DNA from: Methanocaldococcus villosus KIN24-T80
GTDB lineage: Archaea > AGJL01 > Methanococci > Methanococcales > Methanocaldococcaceae
Direction of reading: 5' to 3'
NCBI RefSeq assembly: GCF_000371805.1
Contig: NZ_AQUK01000001.1
Location: 818,268 to 882,267 of the forward strand
Length of the DNA stretch: 64,000 bases
A model generated the notes under the pieces. It saw only the letters and a program-made list of their open reading frames with translations. It searched no databases and was not told the DNA's origin. Of the stretch, positions 6,439-7,457 are shown in pieces; position 1 is the stretch's first letter, and each line of letters starts with the position of its first letter. Made by a program: the position numbers and the translations under genes.

Positions 6439-6482
6439 AAATCCCCCTCATAAATGTTATTAAGTTATTAGATAAAGAAACA

Positions 6483-6490
6483 TTTATATA
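6483..6490 (+). promoter_or_regulatory. TATA element of the selenoprotein gene
   Basis: TTTATATA, 33-40 bp upstream of the ATG at 6523, with GGTGAT at 6514-6519 as ribosome binding site. It lies in the divergent spacer shared with secG. Confidence 0.5.
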
Positions 6491-6522
6491 TTATTTTTCT
6501 TATAATAGTTTATGGTGATGTC

Positions 6523-6804
6523 ATGAATTTGAACATAGATGAAAAAGCTATAGATTTTATAATGAAAAAATTAAAAGAAAATAAAAAAGATGCAGTAGTT
6601 ATACATTTCTCTGGTTTTAGTTGAAGAGGCCCTAAATTTGATGTGGTAATAAAAGACCCTTCCCCAAATGATGAATTAGTCTATGATAAAGAATTTAAAA
6701 TATATGTTGATCCAATAGTGAAACAGTTTTTAGATGGAGGTAAAATTAAATTAGTTTATAAAAAATCAATATTTGGGGAAGGGGTTAATGTGGTTATCTG
6801 CTAA
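6523..6804 (+). CDS. HesB-like selenoprotein (in-frame TGA = selenocysteine at residue 34)
   Basis: A 93-residue protein if the TGA at 6622-6624 is read as selenocysteine. ATG 6523 has a perfect GGTGAT site. The frame continues after the TGA without another stop to TAA 6802-6804, and the context FSGFS-U-RGPKFDVVIKD is the HesB/IscA-like selenoprotein seen in Methanocaldococcus. It ends with a Cys (VNVVIC). An archaeal SECIS hairpin directly overlaps the stop codon. HesB/IscA-fold proteins are linked to Fe-S cluster assembly; the exact role of this Sec-containing branch is not known. A standard gene finder would miss it or split it at the TGA. Confidence 0.9.
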
Positions 6805-6831
6805 CGGAACCCATTATTGGGACGTTAGCAG
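6798..6831 (+). promoter_or_regulatory. Archaeal SECIS element in the selenoprotein 3' end
   Basis: A hairpin with a 9-bp lower stem (CTGCTAACG 6798-6806 with CGTTAGCAG 6823-6831), the invariant GAA on the 5' side (6807-6809), an opposing unpaired A (6822), a 4-bp GC-rich upper stem (CCCA/TGGG) and a TTAT loop. This is the archaeal SECIS architecture that directs UGA recoding. The selenoprotein stop codon lies in the 5' arm, and the stop codon of the convergent gene (6825-6827) lies in the 3' arm. Confidence 0.93.
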
Positions 6832-7457
6832 ACTAAACTTTTAACCTCCTTATATATTTTATTCTTATCCTTTTCAAATAGATTGTCTAATATGTAAATA
6901 TTATACTCATAAAAAACTTCCTCTTTTTTTATTATATTAAACTTCTTAGAGCTTATTAAAAGGCCAAAATCAGCATTTAATGTGGTTATTAAACCAAAGA
7001 GTTTTAAAATGTCATTTGCAAATATTGCTCTATTCTTACATTCACCTACTATCCTATTTTTCCCATTTAAGAGCATATCTATCTCTGTAAAATGTCTATT
7101 GTTATAATAGACATTAAGATTTCTCATTACCTCTATATCACTAAATAGAATAAAAAATGAGTAGCAAATAAATAATTCAAAGATTATTCCTTTTGAAAGT
7201 GACATTAGATTTATTTCTTTATTTAGCTCATCCAATAATTTTAGGAAATATTCATCTATTTCATGAATTTTTTGAAGTCTGTTAATATTTTTTATCTCAC
7301 TCAATAAAAAGTTGTTAAAAATTGCTTTTCTATATCTTAATTTATTTAAAGCTAAATTAAAAAACTCATAAAGCTTATTTTCTTCTTCTAACTTAATACC
7401 CTCTAACATGTAATTTCCTATTTTAACCTTTATTTTCTTCTCTCCTTTAAATAACAT
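6825..7457 (-). CDS. PD-(D/E)XK nuclease-like protein
   Basis: A 210-residue protein of unknown role. The centre holds a probable PD-(D/E)XK nuclease core: a helix containing a Glu (KGIIFELFICYSFF), then FTEIDMLL and, after a short strand, VGECKNRA, giving the E...D...ExK arrangement. The layout resembles the nuclease half of Card1/Can2-type proteins, but there is no CARF domain here. It is the last gene of a minus-strand run with the ferredoxin and purQ genes. Its stop codon falls within the SECIS of the convergent selenoprotein gene. The substrate is unknown, so the call rests on the motif only. Confidence 0.55.
   Translation of the reverse strand: MLFKGEKKIKVKIGNYMLEGIKLEEENKLYEFFNLALNKLRYRKAIFNNFLLSEIKNINRLQKIHEIDEYFLKLLDELNKEINLMSLSKGIIFELFICYSFFILFSDIEVMRNLNVYYNNRHFTEIDMLLNGKNRIVGECKNRAIFANDILKLFGLITTLNADFGLLISSKKFNIIKKEEVFYEYNIYILDNLFEKDKNKIYKEVKSLVC

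What the first reader, a model, noticed from the sequence alone, without database searches (positions are those of the whole stretch)
6523..6831. Selenoprotein whose SECIS contains the stop codons of two convergent genes
The in-frame TGA at 6622 plus a textbook archaeal SECIS (GAA/A bulge, GC stem) show UGA recoding. Unusually, the SECIS 5' arm holds the selenoprotein's own TAA, and its 3' arm holds the stop of the opposing nuclease-like gene. The hairpin is thus constrained by two coding ends, and ribosomes terminating on the selenoprotein must sit on the SECIS itself.
Basis: partly seen in the sequence, partly recalled or inferred. Interest (0 to 1): 0.62.

Follow-up and report, generated by a model that had tools for sequence, protein, structure and literature searches.

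The report
HesB selenoprotein ending inside its SECIS
A small, already known selenium-containing protein gene of Methanocaldococcus ends inside the RNA hairpin that tells the ribosome to insert selenocysteine; related genera share that layout, while the neighbouring gene ending in the same hairpin is a local result of tight gene packing.

Summary
Window 6523-6804 (+) encodes a 93-aa HesB/IscA-like protein (NCBIfam TIGR01911) with an in-frame UGA at 6622-6624. A canonical archaeal SECIS (6797-6832: 10-bp stem, GAA/A, CCCA/TGGG) contains its own UAA (6802-6804). The stop of the opposing 210-aa gene (6825-6827) is the same three base pairs read on the other strand. tRNA-Sec, PSTK, SepSecS and SelB are all in the genome.

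The family is known, and its M. maripaludis member is reported as identified by 75Se labelling, so the selenoprotein is not new. The stop-in-SECIS layout is old: 11 of 14 Methanocaldococcus genomes share it, as do examined genomes of three of the four other genera in the order. The stem base also encodes the near-invariant C-terminal Cys. The convergent overlap is recent and recurrent: three unrelated genes end inside this hairpin in three genomes, two of them at the mirrored TAA. Such packing is ordinary here.

The 'ribosome sits on the SECIS' idea is plausible but untested. FruA and VhuU SECIS also abut their stops.

Side result of more interest: three relatives keep the UGA and purifying selection on the protein but have lost the SECIS.

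The parts
6523..6804 (+). hesB-like selenoprotein gene, 93 aa, stop TAA 6802-6804
   Evidence: translation with TGA=U; TIGR01911 HesB_rel_seleno 77.9 bits vs cut-off 66.35; Pfam PF01521
6622..6624 (+). in-frame UGA, predicted selenocysteine 34 (motif FSURGP)
   Evidence: exactly one in-frame TGA in all 33 matching Methanococcales genomes
6797..6832 (+). archaeal SECIS: outer stem 6797-6806/6823-6832, GAA 6807-6809 opposite A 6822, inner stem 6810-6813/6818-6821
   Evidence: fold z -5.5; model R2 hit E 0.0085 genome-wide; pairs listed
6799..6801 (+). C-terminal Cys codon (TGC) in the base of the SECIS 5' arm
   Evidence: C-terminal Cys ends nearly all homologues inspected
6802..6804 (+). selenoprotein stop codon TAA inside SECIS 5' arm
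6825..7457 (-). convergent nuclease-like gene, 210 aa (weak, sub-threshold Pfam similarity only); its stop TAA 6825-6827 lies in the SECIS 3' arm
6480..6518 (+). probable promoter (TATA-like AAACATTTATATATT) and ribosome binding site (GGTGAT) of the selenoprotein gene
   Evidence: sequence inspection only

Best explanation
This is the HesB-like selenoprotein of the Methanococcales. Its mRNA carries a canonical archaeal SECIS starting about 173 nt after the UGA, which with SelB and Sec-tRNA lets the ribosome read UGA as Sec34. The SECIS sits so close to the end of the gene that its 5' arm encodes the C-terminal Cys and the UAA. The ribosome must therefore melt the base of the hairpin each time it terminates, and the hairpin refolds afterwards (inferred). 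UAA in a perfect stem is mirrored as TAA on the other strand, so the hairpin offers a ready stop to any gene arriving in that frame from the other side. In this genome a nuclease-like gene ends there. The overlap is most likely tolerated compaction of an old layout, not a dedicated regulatory device.
For: Family membership: TIGR01911 in 12 of 12 aligned members. One in-frame TGA in 33 of 36 order genomes searched, the other 3 having no match. tRNA-Sec and SepSecS in 14 of 14 genomes; PSTK over cut-off and an intact 462-aa SelB in this genome. SECIS helix kept in 99% of cells with three pairs changed on both sides; 0 of 500 shuffles reach the covariation score. Stop inside the SECIS arm in 11 of 14 Methanocaldococcus genomes and in examined genomes of genera g2, g4 and g5. 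Mirrored TAA used as the stop of an unrelated convergent gene (TruB/Cbf5-like, L013); AMMECR1 ends in the apical loop in L014. Literature: the M. maripaludis HesB-like selenoprotein was identified by mutagenesis and 75Se labelling (cited in PMC11097638); GAA/A is the core determinant (PMC11881835); a SECIS directly after the coding region works (PMC9622424).
Against: No expression, labelling or structure data for this organism. Three genomes keep the UGA without a recognisable SECIS, so the SECIS may not be strictly needed everywhere. That melting by terminating ribosomes matters is untested.
Confidence: 0.9

Rival explanations
1. The overlap is a functional gate: a ribosome terminating on the UAA holds the SECIS open, so trailing ribosomes at the UGA cannot use it. 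Sec insertion would then fall as ribosome load rises, a built-in limit on HesB output.
For: The layout is kept in most of the order although sequence and stem length vary. The UGA-to-stem distance of about 173 nt leaves room for several ribosomes.
Against: Genus g3 has moved the stop 2-17 nt upstream of the stem with no sign of harm. Other SECIS in this genome abut stops too (FruA, VhuU). A SECIS placed directly after a coding region works well (PMC9622424).
Confidence: 0.12
2. The convergent overlap is a selected device: the two 3' ends form a sense-antisense pair that silences the SECIS or links the two genes.
For: Three different convergent genes end inside this hairpin in three genomes.
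Against: The neighbour differs between lineages and in most genomes ends outside the hairpin. Two of the five convergent pairs in this window overlap outright, so tight packing is ordinary here.
Confidence: 0.04
3. The UGA is a true stop (decayed or split gene) and the hairpin is incidental.
For: No protein data for this organism; three relatives lack the SECIS.
Against: Reading frame and sequence after the UGA are conserved throughout the order. dN/dS is about 0.05-0.1 in the full-length comparisons and about 0-0.1 after the UGA. A canonical SECIS lies exactly at the gene end, and the Sec machinery is complete.
Confidence: 0.02

Closest known systems
HesB-like selenoprotein of Methanococcales (TIGR01911 HesB_rel_seleno; MMJJ_08070 in M. 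maripaludis)
   Same: Same family, UxGP motif, one UGA, C-terminal Cys, SECIS at the gene end.
   Different: This copy is the most diverged in its genus (45-53% identity) and its SECIS stem is 2 bp shorter inside and extended at the base; the convergent neighbour is unique to this genome among those searched.
Canonical euryarchaeal SECIS (kink-turn-like GAA/A element; fruA, vhuU, vhuD, fwdB, fdhA)
   Same: GAA/A internal loop, GC-rich inner stem, stable outer stem.
   Different: Usually described as lying in the untranslated region; here the stem holds the last codon and the stop. FruA and VhuU elements directly abut their stops, close to the same layout.
Bacterial SECIS
   Same: Overlaps coding sequence and must be unfolded by translating ribosomes.
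   Different: Bacterial SECIS directly follows the UGA and binds the SelB C-terminal domain; this one is about 173 nt away at the stop codon and is of the archaeal type.

Membership tests
HesB-like selenoprotein (TIGR01911) | Profile score over the curated cut-off | tested here: met
   77.9 bits vs 66.35 for the window protein; 12 of 12 members match
HesB-like selenoprotein (TIGR01911) | In-frame UGA at the U-x-G-P position | tested here: met
   FSURGP, TGA 6622; one TGA in all 33 matching order members
HesB-like selenoprotein (TIGR01911) | Selenium actually incorporated | not testable with these tools
   Shown for M. maripaludis by 75Se labelling according to PMC11097638; not for this organism
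Archaeal SECIS | GAA opposite A between two helices | tested here: met
   GAA 6807-6809, A 6822
Archaeal SECIS | Three consecutive G-C pairs in the upper stem | tested here: met
   CCC/GGG
Archaeal SECIS | Covariation support for the stem | tested here: met
   3 pairs with both-side changes, 0 of 500 shuffles reach the covariation score; only 9 sequences
Archaeal SECIS | Location in an untranslated region (usual description, not essential to identity) | tested here: not met
   5' arm contains the last sense codon and UAA; the layout recurs across the order with a conserved GAA/A core
Sec-decoding organism | tRNA-Sec, PSTK, SepSecS, SelB present | tested here: met

The most novel reading that the evidence does not exclude
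In some Methanocaldococcus the hesB UGA is decoded without any canonical SECIS in its mRNA. Sister genomes G013 and G008 lost everything after the UAA, and G007 lost 16 nt including the GAA/A core. All keep the UGA and the reading frame, and selection still acts against amino-acid change after the UGA. If the UGA is read there, Sec insertion in these cells works with a cryptic or distant element, or with none.
Probability: 0.2. Interest if true: 0.75.

Novelty: new member of a known kind. Interest (0 to 1): 0.36.

Why it matters
Archaeal SECIS elements are described as untranslated-region elements. Here one is also coding sequence throughout most of an order, so C-terminal Cys, stop codon and recoding signal share the same bases. 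That is a compact natural test of whether a terminating ribosome interferes with an archaeal SECIS. The relatives that lost the SECIS but kept the UGA make the open question of what archaeal Sec insertion really requires directly testable.

Tried and rejected
Rfam scan of the window found nothing at gathering scores. The first genome-contig scan returned no relative and a second returned one MAG locus of Methanocaldococcus. No solved structure matched the protein profile at E <= 0.01; the best weak matches are A-type Fe-S carriers. A MAFFT alignment of mixed SECIS lengths (A4) misaligned the 3' arms and was replaced by A5. A search for a hidden SECIS near hesB in G013, G008 and G007 used a motif scan, model R2 without filters, whole-genome model searches and local folding; nothing credible was found. 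The idea that the opposing gene is a conserved partner was rejected because its homologues lie elsewhere. Papers reporting the stop-in-SECIS overlap were looked for and not found in the held library; the original 2004 description of archaeal HesB-like selenoproteins (known to me from memory) was not among the papers found.

Full report
Observation. The window holds a 93-codon frame, 6523-6804 (+), interrupted by one TGA at 6622-6624. At its end lies TCTGCTAACG-GAA-CCCA-TTAT-TGGG-A-CGTTAGCAGA (6797-6832). It folds at -22.4 kcal/mol against -8.65 +/- 2.49 for shuffles (z -5.5, 0 of 200), and the core hairpin is still predicted to form at 85 C. The gene's TAA (6802-6804) lies in the 5' arm. The opposing 210-codon frame (6825-7457, -) ends with TAA at 6825-6827 in the 3' arm. 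Positions 6802, 6803 and 6804 pair with 6827, 6826 and 6825, so the two stop codons are the same three base pairs read from the two strands, and both proteins end in Cys-stop.

Identity. The protein scores over the curated cut-off of TIGR01911 (HesB_rel_seleno) and over the Pfam cut-off of PF01521. All 33 Methanococcales genomes with a match, out of 36 searched, carry exactly one in-frame TGA at this gene. tRNA-Sec and SepSecS are in all 14 Methanocaldococcus genomes. PSTK and an intact 462-aa SelB are in this genome; the stops reported inside the SelB match are not borne out by the open frame. The HesB-like protein of M. maripaludis was identified by mutagenesis and 75Se labelling, and its function is unclear (PMC11097638). 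The selenoprotein itself is therefore known.

The hairpin is a SECIS. GAA opposite A, three G-C pairs above it and a long outer stem match the methanogen SECIS, in which the two A of GAA are invariant and the kink-turn-like motif is essential (PMC11881835). Across nine Methanocaldococcus sequences 99% of cells pair and three pairs change on both sides; no slid version comes close. A model built from other SECIS (R2, without this sequence) finds it at E = 0.0085 for the whole genome. Other SECIS in this genome belong to FdhA (5' side), FwdB, FruA, VhuD and VhuU; the gene names rest on my reading of the translations.

The stop-in-SECIS layout is old. In 11 of 14 Methanocaldococcus genomes the UAA lies one to six bases into the outer stem. 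In genera g4 and g5 the stem reaches further into the coding end, and in g2 the outer helix also begins before the stop. In g3 the stop sits 2-17 nt before the stem in the cases the scan could score. The stem base encodes the C-terminal Cys, present in nearly every homologue seen (one genome has Tyr and a shorter stem). By comparison with A-type Fe-S carriers this may be the equivalent of a conserved C-terminal ligand Cys, but the profile comparison does not reach that far, so this is inference. In the same genome the FruA and VhuU elements begin directly at their stops, so closeness of SECIS and stop is a trend and HesB is its extreme.

The opposing stop is local. The nuclease-like gene occurs in 7 other genomes but elsewhere in them, and its homologues diverge over the last two or three residues. 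Its frame gives only weak sub-threshold Pfam similarity, so 'nuclease-like' is tentative. Two other genomes have unrelated genes ending inside the hairpin: a TruB/Cbf5-like gene at the same mirrored TAA (L013) and AMMECR1 in the apical loop (L014); in four more an acyl-CoA synthetase-like gene ends just outside. A UAA in a perfect stem always places TAA on the other strand, so about one in three incoming frames would meet it; this needs no selection. Two of five convergent pairs in this window overlap outright.

Mechanism. Shown: sequence, predicted structure, conservation, machinery. Inferred: Sec34 insertion here; melting of the stem base by each terminating ribosome and refolding afterwards. 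Whether this affects decoding is unknown. A SECIS placed directly after a reporter coding region worked without apparent impairment (PMC9622424), and g3 has separated the two, so I judge a dedicated gate unlikely (0.12).

Unexpected side result. G013 and G008, which share a different convergent neighbour starting right after the UAA, have no SECIS at hesB; G007 has GCTAACTGGAAAGTTAGC, a 16-nt deletion of the functional core. Motif scan, two covariance models and local folding found no substitute nearby. Yet between G013 and G008 the post-UGA part has 0 amino-acid changes and 7 silent ones (144 and 36 sites; chance about 1e-5 without selection, if the loss predates their split, as the shared breakpoint suggests), and G007 shows 9 silent and 2 conservative changes of its own. 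Full-length HesB seems still to be made. This needs experiment; a recent loss or a non-canonical element are the cautious readings.

Species names were not given by the tools for G handles.

Noticed in passing
L009 (G013) 1492-1779; L010 (G008) 1492-1779; L011 (G007) reverse strand: hesB keeps the in-frame UGA and purifying selection but has lost the SECIS (all sequence after the UAA replaced in G013/G008; 16-nt core deletion in G007). No substitute SECIS found nearby.
   Followed up: partly
G000:C1:230312-230343 (L045) and window 6807-6822: The FdhA 5'-side SECIS and the HesB SECIS of this genome share an identical 16-nt core, GAACCCATTATTGGGA.
   Followed up: no
L013 (G009) after 1780; L014 (G003) reverse strand: Unrelated convergent genes (TruB/Cbf5-like; AMMECR1) also end inside the hesB SECIS, the first at the same mirrored TAA.
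   Followed up: yes
G004:C1:638020-638049 (-), G000:C1:683635-683664 (+) and equivalents: A conserved SECIS-like hairpin beside tRNA genes scores up to E 9e-4 with the general SECIS model; no selenoprotein was looked for there.
   Followed up: no
L006 (G010): The C-terminal Cys codon TGC is TAC (Tyr) in this one genome, which also breaks the basal SECIS pair; possibly a sequencing error in a draft assembly.
   Followed up: no
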